From: Hamadaea tsunoensis DSM 44101
GTDB taxonomy: Bacteria > Actinomycetota > Actinomycetes > Mycobacteriales > Micromonosporaceae
Assembly (NCBI RefSeq): GCF_000428945.1
Contig: NZ_AUAX01000024.1
Coordinates: 1-64,000, forward strand
DNA: 64,000 nucleotides
Direction of reading: 5' to 3'
The notes under the pieces were generated by a model that saw only the letters and a program-made list of their open reading frames with translations, was not told the DNA's origin and made no database searches. Shown here piece after piece: positions 21,913 to 56,389 of the stretch (within the stretch, counting starts at the first letter, position 1; the number at the start of each line of letters is the position of its first letter). Made by a program: the position numbers and the translations under genes.

Positions 21913-22038
21913 GGTGACCAGACCGCGGCGAAGGATGCTTCGCCCCACTGTGCTGGCAGTGGAGGCCCCGCCCGGGTTTGGCGGGGCCGGAGCGGTCTCC
22001 CGCGGGAGGAGCGGAAGTGAGATCGACGGACCCGGGAC
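21913..22038. ncRNA. Structured intergenic element, copy C1
   Basis: 126 bases, one of three similar copies (others at 49817 and 55721). Predicted folds on the plus strand are: a closing stem GCTTC/GAAGT; hairpin 1 GCCCCACT/AGTGGAGGC with one bulged A; hairpin 2 GGCCCCGCC/GGCGGGGCC, nine pairs here against five in the other copies; and hairpin 3 CTCC/GGAG. It is followed by a small GATCC-TAAA-GGATC hairpin. It lies between convergent genes, 32 bases after the NlpC/P60 stop and 19 bases from the TerC stop. The transcribed strand and function are unknown, and I recognise no known RNA family. Confidence 0.5.
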
Positions 22039-22057
22039 AAAAGATCCTAAAGGATCC

Positions 22058-23050
22058 CTACGCTTTGGATGTCTGTAACGAGCGGTCCCGGCTGGACTTC
22101 ACCAGGCTGGCGATCGTCGCCACCAGCAGCGTCCCGATGATCACCGCGAGCGACAGCCAGATCGGGATGTGCGGGGCCCAGCCCACCGGTTCGCCGCCGT
22201 TGATGAACGGGAGGCTGTTCGTGGCGAGCGCCTCCAGGAAGAGCTTGACGCCGATGAACGCGAGGACCGCGGCGAGCCCGACGGACAGGTAGACGAGCCG
22301 GTTGAGCAGGCCGCCGAGGAGGAAGTACAGCTGGCGCAGGCCCATCAGCGCGAAGACGTTCGCGGTGAAGACCAGGTACGGCTCCTTGGTGAGGCCGAAG
22401 ATCGCGGGGATCGAGTCGAGCGCGAAGATCAGGTCGGTGGTGCCGATCGCGATCATGACGATGAGCATCGGGGTGAACAGCCGCCTGCCGTTGACCCGCG
22501 TGGTCAGCTTGGCGCCGTCGGACTCCTTGCTCATCGGCAGGATCCGGCGGGCCCACCGGATCATCAGGTTCTCCTTGTAGTCACTCTCGTCGTTCTCGCC
22601 GTGCTTGAGCAGCGTGATCGCGGTGTAGACCAGGAAAAGCCCGAAGAAGTAGAAGACCCAGGAGAACCGGCTCACGACCGCGGCGCCGGCGGCGATGAAC
22701 GCGCCGCGCATCACCAGCGCTATCACGATGCCGATGAGCAGAACCTTCTGCTGGTACGCGCGGGGCACCGCGAACCGGGCCATGATGATCACGAAGACGA
22801 AGAGATTGTCGACGGAGAGGCTGTACTCGGTCAGCCAGCCCGCGAAGAACTCGCCTGCGTACTGGCTGCCTTCGTGCAGGTAGATCCAGACGCCGAAGAG
22901 GGCGGCGAGTCCGACGTAGAAGGCGACCCAGAGCGACGATTCGCGCATCGAGGGTTCATGGGGGCGGCGCCCCACGATCATGAGGTCCACCACGAGCAGC
23001 GCTACCAGCGCGACGAGAGTGACGACCCATTCCAGCGTGGTGACGTTCAT
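22058..23050 (-). CDS. TerC-family integral membrane protein
   Basis: 330 aa from ATG 23050, preceded by GGAGG at the correct distance. Eight to nine hydrophobic helices carry the family signatures: FFAGWLTEYSLSVDNLFVFV with the conserved Asp-Asn, and MIAIGTTDLIFALDSIPAIFG with Asp residues. TerC proteins are implicated in tellurite resistance, Mn2+ export and metal loading of exported proteins; no ter operon is present here. It is a single gene. I see no Mn riboswitch of yybP-ykoY type in the 220 bases upstream. Its 3' end is next to structured element C1. Confidence 0.92.
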   Translation of the reverse strand: MNVTTLEWVVTLVALVALLVVDLMIVGRRPHEPSMRESSLWVAFYVGLAALFGVWIYLHEGSQYAGEFFAGWLTEYSLSVDNLFVFVIIMARFAVPRAYQQKVLLIGIVIALVMRGAFIAAGAAVVSRFSWVFYFFGLFLVYTAITLLKHGENDESDYKENLMIRWARRILPMSKESDGAKLTTRVNGRRLFTPMLIVMIAIGTTDLIFALDSIPAIFGLTKEPYLVFTANVFALMGLRQLYFLLGGLLNRLVYLSVGLAAVLAFIGVKLFLEALATNSLPFINGGEPVGWAPHIPIWLSLAVIIGTLLVATIASLVKSSRDRSLQTSKA

Positions 23051-23271
23051 AGAGAATCCTCCGGTTGGCAGCATTTTGCCCCAGAGGTCTCTCCCGCCGC
23101 GAGAGCCCTACGCTCAGGGTTCACACGACCGATGACACCGGGCTCCTCTGTGCGAGCCGTGCTGACGAGGCCATCGCGGGGGGATACTCCCCTCTCTGTA
23201 GCACCATTGTCGCTCATGAGACGCCCCAGGGCGAAACCGGGCCGGAAGATCGGCGTGGCAGGATCTTCTCC

Positions 23272-49048: not shown

Positions 49049-49152
49049 CCCCGCCATGTGCTTTGTCGCGACTATCCGATTTGCACGGACGGTCGCGGCC
49101 GGACTTGGTGACGGTCGCGGCCGGACTTGGTGACGGTCGCGGCCGGACTTGG
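49049..49152. other. Start of the repeat-rich intergenic region after proS
   Basis: After the proS stop, a TTTGTCGCGACT motif (49062-49078, minus orientation of GGACAGTCGCGACAAA) precedes the 22-base tandem array. The same order is found, inverted, next to element B at 55630-55685, so the similarity between the two intergenic regions extends beyond the 146-base element. Confidence 0.6.
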
Positions 49153-49154
49153 TG
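49089..49154 (+). repeat. Three perfect 22-base tandem repeats
   Basis: Units at 49089, 49111 and 49133 are identical (beginning ACGGTCGCGG and ending CGGACTTGGTG). The array ends at the left terminal repeat of the 146-base element, whose first two bases it shares. The homologous flank of the 55484 copy has no such expansion. Confidence 0.95.
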
Positions 49155-49298
49155 ATCGTTTACGGCCGAGGTGTGAAAACGGCCCCTTGATGCATGATCG
49201 TTGACGGTCCTGGAGCACGCTGACCGGCTCCGGCTACACCTGAGGCGTAAATGATCATGCAGATCGGCTCGGATTGACACCTCAGCCGTAAATGATCA
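49153..49298 (-). repeat. 146-base MITE-like element, copy A
   Basis: The ends are inverted repeats of about 22 bases: TGATCGTTTACGGCCGAGG on the left and the complement of CCTCAGCCGTAAATGATCA on the right. Two more half-motifs lie inside (TGCATGATCGTTGACGG and its partner near 49234-49257). Copy B (55484) has the same length in opposite orientation, roughly 80 percent identical by eye. No coding capacity. It resembles a non-autonomous mobile element or a large structured repeat; no transposase is in the window. Confidence 0.8.
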
Positions 49299-49816
49299 AG
49301 GACTCCGCGCCTCCGGCCCACATGACGGAAGATCGTTCTCGCGTCATGGGCTCCGGCCGAGGACGGGGCGGCGCGCGCTTGATCGACAGCGGCTGCGATG
49401 TTAAAACCCGCCCCTGTCCCAAGATCCAGGGCGCCCCAGATGTAGGAAATCGGCCCATAGCGACATCCCAGCCGCAATGGATCGAGGAACAGGCCCGAAA
49501 ACTACATCCCAGCCGCGAACGATCACCCACCAGCCGATCCACCCGATCGCCATATCGGACAGTCGCGACAAAGTCCGGGGTAAAGAGCCGCGTCACCCAT
49601 AGCGGGTCGCCGATGATCGCGCCGAACTCCTTGATCATGTAACCCTGTTCCGGCAAGAAAACGCTCTCCTGCCGATATGGCGTTACATGATCAAGGCGCA
49701 GCCACCCCCATCGCCGGAATGGCGCTACATGATCATGGCGTCGGGCACAGGACCCGCCGGCAACCGATACCCATATCGGACAGTCGCGACAAAAGCCGGG
49801 TTGAAGGGGTGAACCA
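49299..49816. other. Repeat-rich intergenic region: 25-base motifs and ATGATCAT hairpins
   Basis: No gene is credible. Three more copies of the motif TGATC-N5-CGGCTGNGATGT lie at about 49379-49404, 49461-49485 and 49501-49524. CATATCGGACAGTCGCGACA occurs at 49552 and 49772. Between these, TTGATCATGTAAC (49631) is inverted as GTTACATGATCAA (49683) and partly repeated as GCTACATGATCATGG (49724). The part next to element A also resembles the flank of element B. Confidence 0.75.
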
Positions 49817-49930
49817 GCGACCGGACGACGGTGATGGATGCCTCGCCCCACTCAGCTGGCAGTGGAGGCCCCCCAGGGCCGGAACGGTCTCCCGCGGGAG
49901 GAGCGGAGGTGAGATCGACGAACCCGGGAA
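49817..49930. ncRNA. Structured intergenic element, copy C2
   Basis: About 114 bases, aligned with C1 and C3. The closing stem reads GCCTC / GAGGT here, where C1 and C3 have GCTTC / GAAGT: both sides change together. Hairpin 1 GCCCCACT/AGTGGAGGC, hairpin 2 GGCCC/GGGCC with loop CCCA, hairpin 3 CTCC/GGAG. It is 23 bases from the stop of the minus-strand APC permease gene and about 770 bases after proS. Confidence 0.5.
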
Positions 49931-49953
49931 CAAAAGATCTTGATAAAAGATTC

Positions 49954-51150
49954 TCAAGCCCTTGATCTCAGCCGAACGACGCGATAGACAAGGCCGACGG
50001 CGTAGACCCCCACCCCGGCCAGGATCGCCGGCAGCGGCAGCGTCACGACCAGCACCACGCAGCCGAGCGCGCCGAGCACCTGCCAGAAGCGGGCGTAGAG
50101 GCGGTCGGTCTGCGTGAACGCGGCCAGGTTCGCGACCAGGTAGTAGACCAGCACGCCGAACGACGAGAATCCGATCGCCCCGCGCAGGTCCACCGTCAGC
50201 ACGAGTGCGCAGACCACCGCGCCGAGTACCAGCTCCGCGCGGTGGGGCACCTGGTACTTCTCGTGCACCGCGGCGAGGTACCGCGGCAGGTCGCCGGTCC
50301 GGGCCATCGCCAGCGTCGTGCGCCCCACTCCCGCGATCAGCGCCAGCAGCGCGCCGAGGGACGCGAGTGCCGCGCCGATCGTCACGATCACCGACGGGTA
50401 CGCGTCGTGCAGCGGGGCGGTGGACGTCGCGAGCGCGTCGGCGCCGAGCGCGTGCAGGACGGCCACGCCGACGAACGCGTACACGATGACGGCGATGCCC
50501 AGCGCGATCAGGATCGCCCGGGGGATCGTGCGGCGCGGTTCGCGTACCTCCTCGCCCATGGTCGCGATCCGCGCGTAGCCCGCGAACGCGAAGAACAGCA
50601 GGCCCGCCGACTGCAGCACGCCGTAGGCACCGTGCACCTGCCCCGCCGGCGCCCCGGGGGCACGCAACCCGGCCGCCGTCACCACCGCGAGCACCACCAG
50701 CACCGCGGCGACCAGGATCCGAGCCAGTTTCGCCGTACGCGTGACCCCGCGGTAGTTGACCGCCACCAGTCCCGCCACGGCGGCCACGGCCACGGGACGT
50801 TCCCAGCCGGCGGGGGCGGCGTACGCGGCGAACGTCAGCGCCATGGCCGCGCAGGAGGCCGTCTTGCCGACGACGAAGCCCCAGCCGGCGATGAAACCCC
50901 ACCAGTCGCCGAGGCGTTCGCGTCCGTACACGTAGGTGCCGCCGGACGTCGGGTACTGCGCGGCCAGCTGCGCCGACGCGGTCGCGTTGCAGTACGCGAC
51001 GATCGCGGCGATCCCGAGGCCGGCCAAGAACAGCGGTCCGGCCGCCCGGGCGGCGGGCGCGAAGGAGGCGAAGACGCCTGCGCCGATCATGGAGCCGAGG
51101 CCGATGACGACGGCGTCGAGCGTGCCGAGCCGGCGGGCGAGGGTGGTCAC
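49954..51150 (-). CDS. APC-superfamily amino acid permease
   Basis: 398 aa with about 12 hydrophobic helices. The first helix contains VIGLGSMIGAGVFASF, the glycine-rich unwound substrate-binding segment of the APC fold, and helix 6 has LLFFAFAGYARIATMGEEVREPRRTIPRAI, a typical APC signature. It is shorter than most family members (no C-terminal extension). The start is nine bases from the stop of the Rrf2 gene, so it is the last gene of the sulfate/Rrf2 operon. Uptake of a sulfur amino acid would fit that context but is a guess. Confidence 0.85.
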   Translation of the reverse strand: MTTLARRLGTLDAVVIGLGSMIGAGVFASFAPAARAAGPLFLAGLGIAAIVAYCNATASAQLAAQYPTSGGTYVYGRERLGDWWGFIAGWGFVVGKTASCAAMALTFAAYAAPAGWERPVAVAAVAGLVAVNYRGVTRTAKLARILVAAVLVVLAVVTAAGLRAPGAPAGQVHGAYGVLQSAGLLFFAFAGYARIATMGEEVREPRRTIPRAILIALGIAVIVYAFVGVAVLHALGADALATSTAPLHDAYPSVIVTIGAALASLGALLALIAGVGRTTLAMARTGDLPRYLAAVHEKYQVPHRAELVLGAVVCALVLTVDLRGAIGFSSFGVLVYYLVANLAAFTQTDRLYARFWQVLGALGCVVLVVTLPLPAILAGVGVYAVGLVYRVVRLRSRA

Positions 51151-51159
51151 GCCGCCGAG

Positions 51160-51558
51160 TCAACCAGACGTGCTCTCACACCCCGACAACAGATCGGCGA
51201 TCGAAACCTCGTCCAGTACGCGCAGGGTCGCGTCGTCGGCCGCTCCCCACAACGTGCTCAGCCGCTCGCCCAGCGGGTCCGCGCGGCGGGGCGCGGGCGG
51301 TCCCGGCGGGTCGAGGACGCGCCGGACGTCGGCCAGCGTGATCTGGTCCGGCGGGCGGCTGAGCGCGTACCCGCCGTAGTGGCCGCGCTGGGCCCGGACC
51401 AGGTTGGCCCGGCGCAGCTCGGCCAGCACGTCGTAGAGGTACGGCCGGGGGATGCCCGCGTCCCGGGCGAGGGTGGCCGCCTTCGCCGGTGCGGGCGCCG
51501 ACCGGGCCAGGCCGAGCAGCGCCCGCACCGCGTAGTCGACGCGGGCCGGCAGGGTCAT
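51160..51558 (-). CDS. Rrf2-family regulator within the sulfate operon
   Basis: 132 aa. The winged-helix N-terminus (LPARVDYAVRALLGLARS, TLARDAGIPRPYLYDVLAELRRANLVRAQRGHYGGYAL) is typical of Rrf2. The three-cysteine Fe-S segment of IscR/NsrR is absent; a single Cys is near the C-terminus, so this is a CymR-like, cluster-free type. Start seven bases after the cysA stop. In Bacillus CymR senses cysteine status; here a role in controlling the sulfate operon is inferred from position. Confidence 0.85.
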   Translation of the reverse strand: MTLPARVDYAVRALLGLARSAPAPAKAATLARDAGIPRPYLYDVLAELRRANLVRAQRGHYGGYALSRPPDQITLADVRRVLDPPGPPAPRRADPLGERLSTLWGAADDATLRVLDEVSIADLLSGCESTSG

Positions 51559-51565
51559 GCCGGGA

Positions 51566-52537
51566 TCACACCGTGAGCGAGAGCGCCGACGGGATCGCCC
51601 GCAGGTGGACGGTGTCCCCCGTACGCAGCCGCAGCCCTTCGGCGGTCCCCCGGGTCACCTGCACCCAGACGTCCTCCGGGTCCTCGGCCGCGGAGCGGGC
51701 CTGGAGCTCGACGCGTACCTCGAAGCCCAGGTGGACGATCCGGTTCACGGTCGCCTCGACGGTCCCGGGCTCGGGCGAGGTCGCGATGTCGATGTCGTGC
51801 GGCCGGACCAGCCGCCCGTCCAGCCGGGTCACCGGGCCGAGGAAGCTCATCACGAACGGGCTCGCCGGCTCGTCGTAGAGCTGCTGCGGCGTACCGGCCT
51901 GCTGCACCTGCCCGTCGGCGAGCACGACGATCGAGTCCGACACGTCCATCGCCTCCTCCTGGTCGTGCGTCACAAAGACGGTCGTCACGTGCACCTCGTC
52001 GTGCAACCGCCGCAGCCACGTACGCAACTCCTTGCGTACCTGGGCGTCGAGGGCGCCGAAGGGCTCGTCGAGGAGCAGCACCTCGGGCTCGACCGCGAGC
52101 GCCCGGGCGAGCGCCATGCGCTGGCGCTGGCCGCCCGACAGCTGCGCGGGATAGCGGTCGCGGAACTGTTCCAGGTGCACCAGCTGCAGCAGCTCGTCGA
52201 CCCGCTTGCGGATCTCGGCCTTGGGGCGCTTGCGGATCTCCAGGCCGAACGCGACGTTGCGGAACACGCTCATGTGCTTGAACGCGGCGTAGTGCTGGAA
52301 GACGAAGCCGACGTTGCGCCGCTGCGGGGACAGCCGCGTCGCGTCCACACCCGAGATCGTGACCGTGCCCGCGTCCGGCGTCTCCAGGCCCGCGATCACC
52401 CGCAGCAGCGTGGACTTGCCGCCGCCGCTCGGGCCGAGCAGCGCGGTCAGCGAGCCGGAGGTGATGTCGACGCTCACGTCCTTCAGGACCGGGGTGCTGC
52501 CGAACGACTTGGAGACGTCGCGTACTTCGATGGCCAT
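51566..52537 (-). CDS. cysA: Sulfate/thiosulfate ABC transporter ATPase
   Basis: 323 aa. Walker [11 protein letters not shown]-loop [17 protein letters not shown] (characteristic of CysA), signature LSGGQRQR, Walker [12 protein letters not shown] and H-loop [10 protein letters not shown], then a C-terminal OB-type regulatory region (about 240-323). Its ATG overlaps the cysW stop (ATGA). Energises sulfate import. Confidence 0.95.
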
Positions 52538-53325
52538 CAGTTGCCCTCCTTCGGGCGAAGGACTCGGGTGATCAGGAGCGTGGCGACGGCCACGAGTGCG
52601 AGCAGCGAGGCGGCGGCGAAGGCGGTGAGTACCTCGTAATTGAGGTAGCGCTCCTCGACGAACAGGGTCAGCGTCTGCGTCTCGCCGACGATCTTGCCGG
52701 ACACCACCGCCACGGCGCCGTACTCCCCCAGCGCCCGCGCCAGGCAGAGCACGATCCCGTAGCCGAGCGCGCCGCGGATGCCCGGCACCGTGATCCGCCG
52801 GAACGTCGCCCAGCCGCCGGCGCCGAGCGTACGGGCGGCCTGCTCCTGGTCGTCGCCCATCTGCTCCAGCACCGGCACGATCGCGCGGACGACCAGGGGC
52901 AACGACACGAACACGGTCGCCAGGACCATGCCCGGGACCGAGAAGATCACCTGGATGCCCGCCGTCTCCAGCCAGCCGCCGACCGTCGAATATTTCCCGT
53001 ACGCGAGGATCAGCGCGAGCCCGACGACGACCGGCGACACGGCGAGCGGCAGGTCGATGAGGGCGTTGAGCAGCCGCTTGCCCGGGAATTCCCGGCGGAC
53101 GAGCAGGATCGCGGCGCCGACGCCGAAGACCGTGTTGAGCACGACCGCCCAGATCGCGACCTCGACGGTGACCCGCATGGCGTGCAGGGCCTCCTCGGAG
53201 GTGAGCGATTCGATCACCGGGGCGAGCCCGTCGGCGAACGTCCGCCAGCCGATCAGCCCGATCGGCAGGATCAGCAGGAACAACAGGTACGCGAGCGCGA
53301 CCAGGCGCAGAATCCACTTAGCCAC
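52537..53325 (-). CDS. cysW: Sulfate ABC transporter permease CysW
   Basis: 262 aa, GTG start overlapping the cysT stop by eight bases. Six transmembrane helices with the EAA loop [33 protein letters not shown], and [16 protein letters not shown] near the last helices. Forms the channel with CysT. Confidence 0.94.
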
Positions 53326-54166
53326 GACGCGACCCCCAGCGCTGCAGCAGATCGAGGACGACGAGGACCAGGAACGAGACGACGAGCAGCGCGGTCGAGA
53401 CGGCCGCCGCCGACGCGGTGTCGTCGCCCTCGATCCGGCCGAAGATGTTGACCGCGGCGACCTGGGTCTGGAACGGCAGGTTGCCGGAGAGCAGGACGGT
53501 CGAGCCGAACTCGGCGATCGCCCGGGTGAAGGCGAGCCCGGCCCCCGAGACCATCGCGGGCACCAGGTTCGGCAGGATGATCCGCCGGAACGTCAGCCCC
53601 GGCCCGGCCCCCAGCGAGTACGCGGCCTGCTCCATGTCCCGGTCGAGTTCCTGCAGGACCGGCTGGACCGTGCGTACGACGAAGGGAAGGGTGACGAACA
53701 GGAGCGCGACCACCACCCCCGCCCGCGTGTACGCGAGGTTCACGTGCAGCGGGCTGGTGACGCCGTACAGCGCGAGGAGCACGAGGCCGGCGACGATCGT
53801 GGGCAGCGCGAACGGCAGGTCGATGAGGGCGTCGACGACGCCTTTGCCCCAGAACCTGTCGCGGACCAGGACCCAGGCGATCACCGTGCCCATGACGACG
53901 TTGATGATCGCGACCAGGGCGGACGCGCCGAGGGTGAGCTTGAGGGCGGCCCAGGAATCGGGCGTGGTGACCGCGGACCAGAACGCCTGCGGGCCGCCCT
54001 CGACGCCGCGCCAGGCGACGGCGGCCAGCGGGAACAGCACGATCAGGCTGAGGTAGAGGACGGCGAGGCCGAGGCCGAGCCCGGGGCTCTTGGGTCCCCG
54101 GACGCGGGCCGAGCCCGGTGCCTTGGTGGCACCGGGCGCGGCCGTCCTGTCGAGGGTGGCGGTCAT
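53318..54166 (-). CDS. cysT: Sulfate ABC transporter permease CysT (CysU)
   Basis: 282 aa. Six helices; EAA loop RDMEQAAYSLGAGPGLTFRRIILPNLVPAM and FTRAIAEFGSTVLLSGN are the CysT pattern. The stop and start are one base from the sbp stop, so the four transporter genes are tightly packed. Confidence 0.94.
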   Translation of the reverse strand: MTATLDRTAAPGATKAPGSARVRGPKSPGLGLGLAVLYLSLIVLFPLAAVAWRGVEGGPQAFWSAVTTPDSWAALKLTLGASALVAIINVVMGTVIAWVLVRDRFWGKGVVDALIDLPFALPTIVAGLVLLALYGVTSPLHVNLAYTRAGVVVALLFVTLPFVVRTVQPVLQELDRDMEQAAYSLGAGPGLTFRRIILPNLVPAMVSGAGLAFTRAIAEFGSTVLLSGNLPFQTQVAAVNIFGRIEGDDTASAAAVSTALLVVSFLVLVVLDLLQRWGSRRG

Positions 54167-54167
54167 G

Positions 54168-55217
54168 CTATTTCGCTGATGCGCTCGGGGACGCGGCGAC
54201 CGTGGCGACGCCGTGCTTCTGCTCGATCGCCGTGACCAGGCCGGTCTTCGTGTCGAAGAACTTCTTGGTCACGTCGGTCCAGCCGCCCAGGTCCTTGATG
54301 GTGAACAGGCCCGAAGGGGTCGGGAAGTTCACGCCGCCGGTGTCGACGCCCTGCACCGTCGGCCGGTACCCGTTCTGCGCGTAGATCTTCTGGCCGTCGG
54401 CCGAGAAGAGGAAGTCGAGGAACGCCTTGGCCTCAGTCGGGTGCTCGGAGTTCTTGGTGACCGCGATCGGGTTCTCGATGAGGATCGTCGAGTCCGGGAT
54501 GGTGTAGTCGACGGCCTGCCCGTGCTGCTGGGCGAAGATCGCCTCGTTCTCGTACGAGATGAACGCGTCGCCCTTGCCGCCGGTGAACGTCTGCAGCGAG
54601 GCGCGGCCGGACGAGTCCTGCACCGGGACGTTGGAGATCAGCTTGTCCAGGTAGTCGAGGCCGGCCTGCTGGTCGGCGCCCTTGTTCGACTTCGCGCCGT
54701 AGCCGGCGAGGATGTTCCACCGGGCGCCGCCCGACGTGAACGGGTTCGGCGTCAGCACCTCGACACCCGGCTGCACCAGGTCGTCCCAGGTCTTGAGGTT
54801 CTTCGGGTTCCCCTTGCGGACGCCGATGACGGCGACCGAGTCCGTGACGAAGCCGTTGGTGGCGTTCTTGTTCCAGTCGTCGGCGACCAGACCGGCCGTG
54901 ACCAGGCGGGTGACGTCCGGCTCCAGCGAGAAGGCCACGATGTCGGCCTTCAGGCCGGCCGCGACGGCGCGGCTCTGGTCGCCGGAGGCGCCGTAGGACT
55001 GCTTGAACTTCACGTTCTTGCCGGCGTCGGTCTTCTGGAAGGCCTTGATCAGCGCCTCGTACGCCGCCTGCGGAGTCGAGTACGCCACCAGCGAGAGCGT
55101 CACCTCCGGCTTGTCCCCGGCGCCGCTGCCGGAGTCCTTCGAGCAGCCGGCGAGGCCGATCGCCGCGACCGCGAGGGCGGCGATGCTCGCCGCGACACGT
55201 GCCCTACCCATCGTCAT
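54168..55217 (-). CDS. sbp: Sulfate-binding lipoprotein
   Basis: 349 aa from ATG 55217 with GGGG just upstream; an ATG two codons later is possible. Signal peptide with lipobox GLAGC. Family signatures: VAYSTPQAAYEALIKAF, QSYGASGDQSRAVAAGLKADIVAFSLEPDV, NPFTSGGARWNILAGYG (anion-binding Ser/Gly/Arg), SYENEAIF. It binds sulfate or thiosulfate and hands it to CysTW. About 25-50 bases upstream the AT-rich stretch contains CCTA-N9-TAGG, a possible Rrf2 operator. Confidence 0.93.
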   Translation of the reverse strand: MTMGRARVAASIAALAVAAIGLAGCSKDSGSGAGDKPEVTLSLVAYSTPQAAYEALIKAFQKTDAGKNVKFKQSYGASGDQSRAVAAGLKADIVAFSLEPDVTRLVTAGLVADDWNKNATNGFVTDSVAVIGVRKGNPKNLKTWDDLVQPGVEVLTPNPFTSGGARWNILAGYGAKSNKGADQQAGLDYLDKLISNVPVQDSSGRASLQTFTGGKGDAFISYENEAIFAQQHGQAVDYTIPDSTILIENPIAVTKNSEHPTEAKAFLDFLFSADGQKIYAQNGYRPTVQGVDTGGVNFPTPSGLFTIKDLGGWTDVTKKFFDTKTGLVTAIEQKHGVATVAASPSASAK

Positions 55218-55483
55218 CCCCACTATCCCTACCATCCATATATTCCCTACTGACTTACTAGGCATTGAGTTTGGCATGAGGCGGGGAAATCCGGAAGATG
55301 GCCGAACGGGTGACTCAGGTCACGGGTACATCAAGATCTTCTCTAAGATCAATTCGTCCCGGGTCGCTACAGGCCGGTTTTCTACATCTCAGCCGCTGTG
55401 GATCACGCTAAGCCGTCTGGCCGACCGCTGTGGCCCGGGATGCGGGAACGATCTTCTACGATGCGGCACTGATCCTGTTTTCG
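55218..55483. other. Upstream region of the sulfate operon, repeat-containing
   Basis: The sbp promoter must lie here; CCTAGTAAGTCAGTAGG (minus strand, about 55240-55262) is an imperfect inverted repeat that could be an operator. From about 55350 the sequence matches the reverse complement of the flank of element A (for example TTCTACATCTCAGCCGCTG at 55379). TGACTCAGGTCA near 55311 is another small inverted repeat. No gene is seen. Confidence 0.5.
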
Positions 55484-55629
55484 TGATCATTTACGGCTGG
55501 GGTGTAAATCCGGCCGGATCTGCATGATCATTTACGCGTCAGGTGTAGCAAAAGCCGGTCAACGCGCTCCAGAACCGTAAACGATCATGCATCGGGCGGC
55601 CTTTTCCGCACCTCAGCCGCAAACGATCA
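55484..55629 (+). repeat. 146-base MITE-like element, copy B
   Basis: It starts TGATCATTTACGGCTGGGG and ends CACCTCAGCCGCAAACGATCA-like (the complement of the start with few differences). Internally TGATCATTTACGCGTCAGG (55524) and CCAGAACCGTAAACGATCA (about 55570) form a second, nested inverted pair. The length is identical to copy A and the orientation opposite. It is located between the sulfate operon and the second Rrf2 gene. Confidence 0.8.
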
Positions 55630-55720
55630 CCCCGCCGGCCGTCGACTGGCCACACAAGCCGGACAGGCGCGACAAAGGCCGGGCCGACCCAAGCCGGGCG
55701 GGGTTTGGTTGGGGGTAAAC
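55630..55720. other. Link between element B and structured element C3
   Basis: Contains GGACAGGCGCGACAAAGG (55660), a variant of the GGACAGTCGCGACAAA motif seen three times around 49.1-49.8 kb, then GGG-rich sequence. In both regions this motif comes shortly before the structured element (C2 or C3). Confidence 0.6.
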
Positions 55721-55835
55721 GGTGACCGGACGACGGCGGACGATGCTTCGCCCCACTCAGGTGGCAGTGGAGGCCCCCCAGGGCCGGAACGGTCTCCCGC
55801 GCGAGGAGCGGAAGTGAGATCGACGAACCCGGGAC
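55721..55835. ncRNA. Structured intergenic element, copy C3
   Basis: 115 bases, with closing stem GCTTC/GAAGT, hairpin 1 GCCCCACT/AGTGGAGGC, hairpin 2 GGCCC/GGGCC and hairpin 3 CTCC/GGAG. Compared with C1 it is 11 bases shorter, and the whole difference is in hairpin 2. It lies 47 bases from the stop of the minus-strand Rrf2 gene; the gap holds several GATCTTGA/TTGATC segments. Confidence 0.5.
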
Positions 55836-55882
55836 AGTATTTTGATCCGAACTTGATCTTGAAATTGATCTCGAACTAAAGA

Positions 55883-56320
55883 TCAGAAAGGCAGGGACCC
55901 GCTCGCCAGGTGCTCGAACGTCACCTGCTCCAGCATGGTGCGCTCCTGCGCCTCCACCGCGATCCAGACCTTCTGCAGGGTCTGGGCCGGGCCCTGGTAG
56001 CCGAGATCGGCCGGCAGCTGGCCGCGCACCTGTGACAGCGGGCCGTCGATGATCTCGATGACGGCCGCCAGGGTGATCTCCGACGCGGGCCGGGCGAGCC
56101 AGTAGCCGCCCTCGGGGCCGCGCTGCGCGTTGACCACGCCGCCGCGGCGCAGCTGCAGCAGGATGCTTTCCAGGAACTTCGGCGGGATCTCCTGCGCCTT
56201 GGCTATCCGCTCGGAGGTGATCGGGAAGTCCGCCGGGGGCTTGCCGGCCAGGACCGGCTCGACGGAGGCGAGCTCGATCACGGCACGGATCGCGTAGTCC
56301 ACGCGGGCGGAGAGGCGCAC
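55883..56320 (-). CDS. Second Rrf2-family regulator, upstream of the sulfate operon
   Basis: 145 aa from GTG 56320; TAAAGT lies seven bases upstream. Winged helix with SARVDYAIRAVIELASVE, RIAKAQEIPPKFLESILLQLRRGGVVNAQRGPEGGYWLARP, then the Rrf2 dimerisation helix. No cysteine at all, so it cannot bind an Fe-S cluster in the IscR manner. The promoter region has a direct repeat CGGACAA-N4-CGGATAA (about 56333-56350) that could be an autoregulatory site. A role over the sulfate operon 0.7 kb downstream is inferred. Confidence 0.87.
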   Translation of the reverse strand: MRLSARVDYAIRAVIELASVEPVLAGKPPADFPITSERIAKAQEIPPKFLESILLQLRRGGVVNAQRGPEGGYWLARPASEITLAAVIEIIDGPLSQVRGQLPADLGYQGPAQTLQKVWIAVEAQERTMLEQVTFEHLASGSLPF

Positions 56321-56389
56321 ATGAACAACTTTATCCGACCGTTGTCCGTGTTCCCACGCGCTCCGGGGCATCTTAGGGGCCAGCGTCCG

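What the first reader, a model, noticed from the sequence alone, without database searches (positions are those of the whole stretch)
55721..55835. Three-copy structured element with compensatory change, candidate ncRNA
Copies at 21913-22038, 49817-49930 and 55721-55835 align along their whole length. The closing stem changes from GCTTC/GAAGT (C1, C3) to GCCTC/GAGGT (C2): both strands change together. Hairpin 2 is GGCCC/GGGCC in C2 and C3 but a symmetric nine-pair GGCCCCGCC/GGCGGGGCC in C1, accounting for the full 11-base length difference. Hairpin 1 is invariant while its loop varies. This is the behaviour of a selected RNA fold. I recognise no Rfam family.
Basis: partly seen in the sequence, partly recalled or inferred. 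Interest (0 to 1): 0.85.

Follow-up and report, generated by a model that had tools for sequence, protein, structure and literature searches.

The report
Repeat family capping bacterial gene ends
The three matching stretches belong to a family of more than two hundred closely similar, hairpin-bearing repeats in this actinobacterial genome, more than half of which sit in one fixed orientation just behind a gene's stop codon; they look like a long relative of the known REP-type repeats rather than a small-RNA gene.

Summary
The three copies are real, but they are 3 of 216 pattern matches in a 9.48-Mb genome. The element is an intergenic repeat: TGGCAG box, variable hairpin, conserved 45-nt core ending CCCGGGA, AT-rich GATCTTGA tail. 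In 68 of 120 copies examined the core ends within 60 nt of the stop codon of a gene on the opposite strand; the mirror side gives 10, random intergenic points 9%. All 19 close pairs point tail-outward. A model finds relatives in 32 of 354 family genomes, including all six Asanoa held; 15 of 27 copies of one Asanoa genome sit beside genes whose likely orthologue carries a copy in another. Hairpin 2 holds: 94% paired, 65 double-change cells against 21 in shuffles. No Rfam family at threshold, no Y1 transposase, no RVT_1 reverse transcriptase in this genome. Best reading: a long REP/BIME-like mobile repeat capping gene 3' ends. Its mover is unknown; transcription was not testable. New variant of a known kind.

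The parts
55721..55834 (+). Copy C3 of the repeat, up to CCCGGGA
   Evidence: model R1 hit 55751-55834, 89.3 bits
55762..55767 (+). TGGCAG box, conserved across genera
55772..55785 (+).
   Evidence: covariation over 115 copies
55790..55834 (+). Conserved 45-nt core CGGTCTCC...CCCGGGA
55835..55882 (+). AT-rich GATC tail and remaining gap, ending at the stop codon of the Rrf2-like gene on the minus strand (55883-56371)
   Evidence: tandem unit TTGATCTCGAAC at 55842-55877
55331..55366 (-). Remnant of an opposite-facing copy: tail plus GTCCCGGGTCG only (truncated)
49817..49929 (+). Copy C2
   Evidence: R1 hit 49846-49929, 92.4 bits
49867..49880 (+). C2 variable hairpin GGCCC/GGGCC
49930..49953 (+). 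C2 tail, ending at the stop codon of an APC-type permease gene on the minus strand (49954-51150)
21913..22037 (+). Copy C1, with the longer hairpin
   Evidence: R1 hit 21943-22037, 88.5 bits
21964..21988 (+). C1 variable hairpin GGCCCCGCC/GGCGGGGCC
22038..22057 (+). C1 tail, ending at the stop codon of a TerC-like gene on the minus strand (22058-23074)

Best explanation
It is a long REP/BIME-like, non-autonomous repeat: a dispersed DNA element with a covarying hairpin, which spread through this genome and was placed or kept, tail first, in most cases behind the stop codon of a facing gene, and often as outward-facing pairs that cap intergenic islands of other short repeats. Shown: copy number, anatomy, placement, orientation, hairpin 2 covariation, spread over several genera, and presence beside the same genes in different Asanoa species. 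Inferred: that it moved by an unidentified trans-acting enzyme, that its position reflects target choice plus harmlessness, and that older copies are retained because a hairpin and core at a gene's end are useful, for example as a boundary against read-through.
For: 216 copies in one genome, control 0; no BLAST match in the three other genomes of its genus (21 of 43 to 45 candidates scored in each), where a model finds only 1, 2 and 0 at E 1e-4 (3 in the second at a looser cut-off): a lineage-specific amplification. 68 of 120 copies have a convergent stop codon within 60 nt of the 3' end, mirror side 10, random intergenic points in the same segments 9.1%. Similar placement in Asanoa, 70 of 105 copies facing a convergent gene, median gap 21 nt, and in 30 copies from eight genomes of five genera, one of them the window's own: 24 face a convergent gene, 16 of these within 42 nt. 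19 of 19 pairs closer than 1500 nt are tail-outward; of 96 copies with room upstream, 43 have an opposite copy (32) or an end remnant (11, one doubtful by eye) on the far side, against 2 with the end motif in direct orientation. Hairpin 2 covaries. At ahcY one Asanoa species lacks the element while four have it between the stop codon and a terminator-like hairpin that the species without it also has, with remnants of a repeated gene end beyond the element. REPs in print lie mostly beside ORF 3' ends, most under 20 bp away in convergent cases in the two species shown (PMC3733652, section 15 read).
Against: Longer than the 20-40 bp of REPs. No Y1_Tnp match (the RAYT type) in the genome and no RVT_1 match, so no mover is known. 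A duplication of the gene end is seen at ahcY; a general flank test finds no excess in 117 own copies and a small one in Asanoa (12 of 104 at score 20 or more, 7.3 expected, two of the top being tandem copies). 31 of 120 copies face a same-strand gene, and only 11 of the 19 tail-outward pairs lie between convergent genes, so the stop codon is not the whole rule. Shared sites in Asanoa could mean host function rather than mobility. The core is kept in sequence, not visibly in fold.
Confidence: 0.6

Rival explanations
1. A host-used 3'-boundary element: the copies are kept because the hairpin and core stop, pause or process antisense or read-through transcription at gene ends.
For: Preferred orientation and distance in several genera; 15 of 27 G113 copies at genes whose likely orthologue carries a copy in G116; core identity about equal for such sites (0.911) and unrelated sites (0.883-0.884), as expected if the sequence is constrained, though homogenisation of copies would do the same; where the gap is 60-140 nt, 11 of 15 gaps hold a hairpin of their own with z below -2.
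Against: No U-run after the hairpin in either direction (by eye); no terminator-like match at C2 or C3; at ahcY the element was inserted although a terminator-like hairpin was already there; most genomes of the family lack it (322 of 354 without a match at E 1e-4).
Confidence: 0.25
2. A trans-acting small RNA gene family or a cis-regulatory RNA of the known kind.
For: Hairpin 2 covariation; a T.G wobble in 35 of 113 copies at one pair, which is A.C on the other strand; whole-element predicted fold more stable on the plus strand in 93 of 115 own and 27 of 30 diverse copies, and hairpin slots more stable on plus in Asanoa (28 against 8 of 58) and the diverse set (10 against 2 of 17).
Against: Closing stem not supported and hairpin 1 weak; no cross-lineage double change in the consensus fold; 216 copies; no Rfam match at the gathering score; strand preference otherwise mixed: whole element more stable on plus in only 54 of 104 Asanoa copies, and own hairpin slots more stable on minus in 23 of 40 and on plus in 10.
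Confidence: 0.08
3. A SINE-like retro-element: plus-strand RNA copied into new sites from its 3' tail.
Against: No RVT_1 candidate in this genome, 99.5% complete, and a match in only 8 of 17 genomes searched; no general target duplication in own copies; 5' loss may come from the neighbouring repeats.
Confidence: 0.06

Closest known systems
REP elements (GTAG and CGTC super-families; Di Nocera et al. 2013, PMC3733652: abstract and outline, passages, and section 15 seen)
   Same: High-copy, extragenic, hairpin-forming, often as pairs in opposite orientation, close to the 3' ends of flanking genes, patchy among relatives.
   Different: Ours is about 85-125 bp plus a tail, not 20-40 bp; has a 45-nt conserved core and a variable hairpin slot; carries a GATCTTGA tail; no Y1_Tnp match in the genome. 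The words actinobacteria, Micromonospora, Salinispora and Frankia do not occur in that paper's main text.
BIMEs (mosaics of REPs; known to me here from the search listing and abstract opening of PMC2817692)
   Same: Mosaic intergenic islands with units in opposite orientation.
   Different: I made no sequence comparison with BIME units; here the outer units end in a tail, and all 19 close pairs face outward.
Bacterial MITEs and RU elements (PMC2759123, PMC10969869: listing and abstract openings only)
   Same: Short non-autonomous mobile sequences in intergenic space.
   Different: No terminal inverted repeats noticed by eye within one copy, and no general target duplication in own copies.

Membership tests
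REP (GTAG or CGTC type) | Unit of 20-40 bp | tested here: not met
   Aligned unit about 115-126 bp in this genome; box to core end about 65-100 bp in other genera
REP (GTAG or CGTC type) | High copy number, intergenic | tested here: met
   216 places; 2 of 120 copies inside a predicted gene (own gene caller)
REP (GTAG or CGTC type) | Palindromic stem | tested here: met
   Hairpin 2, with paired changes
REP (GTAG or CGTC type) | Unpaired GTAG or CGTC tag at one end of the stem | tested here: inconclusive
   By eye only: CGTC occurs on the minus strand near the 3' end, not as an unpaired tag of the covarying stem
REP (GTAG type) | RAYT (Y1_Tnp) gene in the genome | tested here: not met
   PF01797: 0 matches at E 0.001 in G000 (3 candidates scored); control rings in 5 of 14 genomes
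MITE | Target-site duplication | tested here: not met
   No excess of flank similarity in 117 own copies; small excess in 104 Asanoa copies, with ahcY and tandem copies among the top
MITE | Terminal inverted repeats | not tested
   Looked at by eye only; none noticed
Rfam family | Covariance-model score above gathering | tested here: not met
   Window at gathering: one tRNA only. 15 related loci at E up to 5: three matches, best E 0.012 to a microRNA family, all below gathering and outside the element. C3 region: two matches at E above 4, one overlapping the element
Intrinsic terminator | GC-rich stem followed by a T-run | tested here: not met
   No match at C2 or C3 in 49700-56000; 2 elsewhere, shuffle mean 2.1; C1 not scanned
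Small RNA gene | Discrete transcript | not testable with these tools
   No expression data on hand

The most novel reading that the evidence does not exclude
A SINE-like retro-element of bacteria: a structured plus-strand RNA with a simple-repeat 3' tail, copied into DNA behind stop codons, leaving 5'-truncated copies with intact tails and, at ahcY, a repeated gene end.
Probability: 0.06. Interest if true: 0.9.

Novelty: new variant of a known kind. Interest (0 to 1): 0.5.

Why it matters
Well over a hundred gene ends in one actinobacterium (68 of the 120 copies examined, of 216 counted), and many in each of six Asanoa genomes, carry the same element at a similar distance and orientation. Either an unknown mover recognises gene 3' ends, or bacteria of this family use a shared boundary element there. 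Both can be tested with strain comparisons and 3'-end sequencing. The case also shows how three aligned copies can suggest a compensatory change that 112 copies do not bear out.

Tried and rejected
Rejected or left weak: the closing stem as a pair; hairpin 1, weakly supported at best; a shared RNA fold of the core over lineages (0 of 7 pairs with double changes); a 3' hairpin GGTC/GACC, which is strong in a few genera (by eye on folds) but not kept in this genome; a general target-site duplication; phage or plasmid carriers (no match to C3); RAYT and RVT_1 as movers in this genome; genes inside the 19 paired islands (none predicted); a description in print (searches listed no paper that I recognised as being about this element; listings and abstract openings seen, and PMC3733652 in part). 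An intrinsic terminator: no scan match at C2 or C3. I considered that quasi-palindrome correction during replication can make paired changes without selection; this is not excluded.

Rows dropped and limits of counts: 118 of 120 own copies had the upstream length needed for the alignment and 115 were distinct. Alignment A2 used 50 of the 57 references printed; seven were left out by hand and three shortened. The Asanoa set has 105 copies in hand; 189 were counted by pattern in the six genomes. Sharing of sites rests on BLASTP of the gene ahead (over 55% identity), not on synteny; at least one group (G113 L193 with G116 L213 and G117 L237) may be a loose match. The 120 own copies are those listed first or scoring best, not a random sample. 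Genes were called by a codon-usage script of mine.

Full report
What is there. The three copies align and lie in the intergenic spaces before a TerC-like, an APC-type permease and an Rrf2-like gene, each on the minus strand (gene names recalled from the translations, no family search was run on them). Rfam finds only a tRNA in the window at curated thresholds. A core pattern finds 106 forward and 110 reverse places in the 9.48-Mb genome, with none for the reversed pattern. I collected 120 copies with surroundings, 105 copies from the six Asanoa genomes held and 30 from eight other genomes of five genera, one of them the window's own genus.

Anatomy. From 5' to 3' on the plus strand: a less conserved leader, a TGGCAG box, a variable hairpin, a 45-nt core CGGTCTCC...CCCGGGA, and a variable tail made of GATCTTGA-like steps. 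The tail belongs to the element: of 106 occurrences of the motif [AT]GATCTTGA in 557 kb in hand, 83 lie within 150 nt behind a copy, 13 in other intergenic places (some behind truncated copies) and 10 in genes. Tails of 60 nt or less are 64% AT against 30% for the sequence in hand, and 63 of 68 hold GATC.

Placement. 88 of 120 copies face a gene on the opposite strand, 68 of them with at most 60 nt between CCCGGGA and its stop codon; on the mirror side only 10 copies have a gene end that near, and random intergenic points in the same segments give 9.1%. The 31 that face a same-strand gene lie further from it, median 109 nt. A further set of 24 copies, picked by their 5' half, shows the same leaning: 16 of the 23 with a gene in hand face a convergent gene. 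All 19 pairs closer than 1500 nt are tail-outward, though only 11 of these lie between convergent genes. Of 96 copies with room, 43 have an opposite copy or remnant at the far side, against 2 with the end motif in direct orientation; in the window the remnant at 55331-55366 is the far end of the C3 island.

Structure. Mutual information picks out the same nested pairs of hairpin 2 and one outer pair that would close a purine-rich internal loop. In Asanoa mainly two kinds of sequence fill the hairpin slot, a GC-rich stem and a GCGGAGCGAAGCGGAG-like piece, and orthologous sites may differ in kind. At ahcY four Asanoa species have three different stem sequences that still pair. In several other genera the slot reads GG-GA-stem-GA-CC. 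The consensus fold over lineages has 7 pairs, none with a double change. Predicted stability gives a mixed answer on which strand folds.

Range and age. 13 of 354 family genomes match a strict core pattern and 32 of 354 a model at E 1e-4, including all six Asanoa, all seven genomes of one other genus, and one and two copies in two of three congeners (matches per genome are capped at 12 in that search). In Asanoa, 15 of 27 copies of G113 sit next to genes whose likely orthologues carry a copy in G116, and 18 of 27 in some other Asanoa genome in hand. Core identity is 0.911 between such sites, 0.884 between other sites within a genome and 0.883 between unrelated sites of different genomes. At ahcY, G115 has no element: stop codon, then a terminator-like hairpin; G113, G114, G116 and G117 have tail, element and a remnant of the gene's last codons before the same hairpin; the G021 orthologue was not found. 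This is an insertion, with a repeated end of about 20-25 nt best seen in G116; such a duplication does not stand out in general.

Mechanism. The amplification in one species, the ahcY insertion and the truncated copies argue for mobility; the shared sites and the kept core in Asanoa argue that copies, once placed, are retained. No Y1_Tnp or RVT_1 match is in this genome, so the mover is unknown. The placement is what is described for REPs, but size, tail and missing RAYT differ. I therefore call it a REP/BIME-like element that works as a gene-end cap, not a member of the REP super-families.

Limits. No transcript data. Paired changes may arise by quasi-palindrome correction. Genes were called by my own script. 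Relatedness of the copies was controlled only by shuffles and slid partners, not by a tree.

Noticed in passing
window 49057-49815 and 55367-55720: The islands beside C2 and C3 are mosaics of other short repeats: CGGACAGTCGCGACAAAG-like (108 hits in 557 kb in hand, all outside my predicted genes), TGATCATTTACGGCTGAGGTGTA-like (34, all), ATGGCGTTACATGATCA-like (19, all); CGCGCAAGATCGTCGA-like (47, all) occurs in other islands, not in the window.
   Followed up: partly
window 49088-49155: About three perfect copies of a 22-nt unit GACGGTCGCGGCCGGACTTGGT in the same island.
   Followed up: no
L210 (G116:C4, about 1929921-1930289): Tandem array of five copies of the element at 81-nt spacing before a gene whose product starts MSGHSKWATTKHKK; two other Asanoa genomes in hand carry one copy there.
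   Followed up: partly
Asanoa core positions 5-6: G021 (18 of 18 copies) and G115 (10 of 11) read GT where the other four genomes mostly read CC or CT, at orthologous sites too: a lineage-wide shift that suggests homogenisation of copies or a trans-acting partner.
   Followed up: no
hairpin slots of Asanoa and other copies, for example L153, L236, L060: The slot pieces GCGAAGC and GCGCAGC equal sequences that I recall as unusually stable DNA mini-hairpins, flanked here by GA/GA or GGA/GGA steps; recalled, not tested.
   Followed up: no
G000 contig ends: Many contigs of this assembly start or end within a few hundred bases of a copy (for example C5:22, C6:306, C10:273, C12:285, C16:272584 of 272926), so the islands probably break the assembly.
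   Followed up: no
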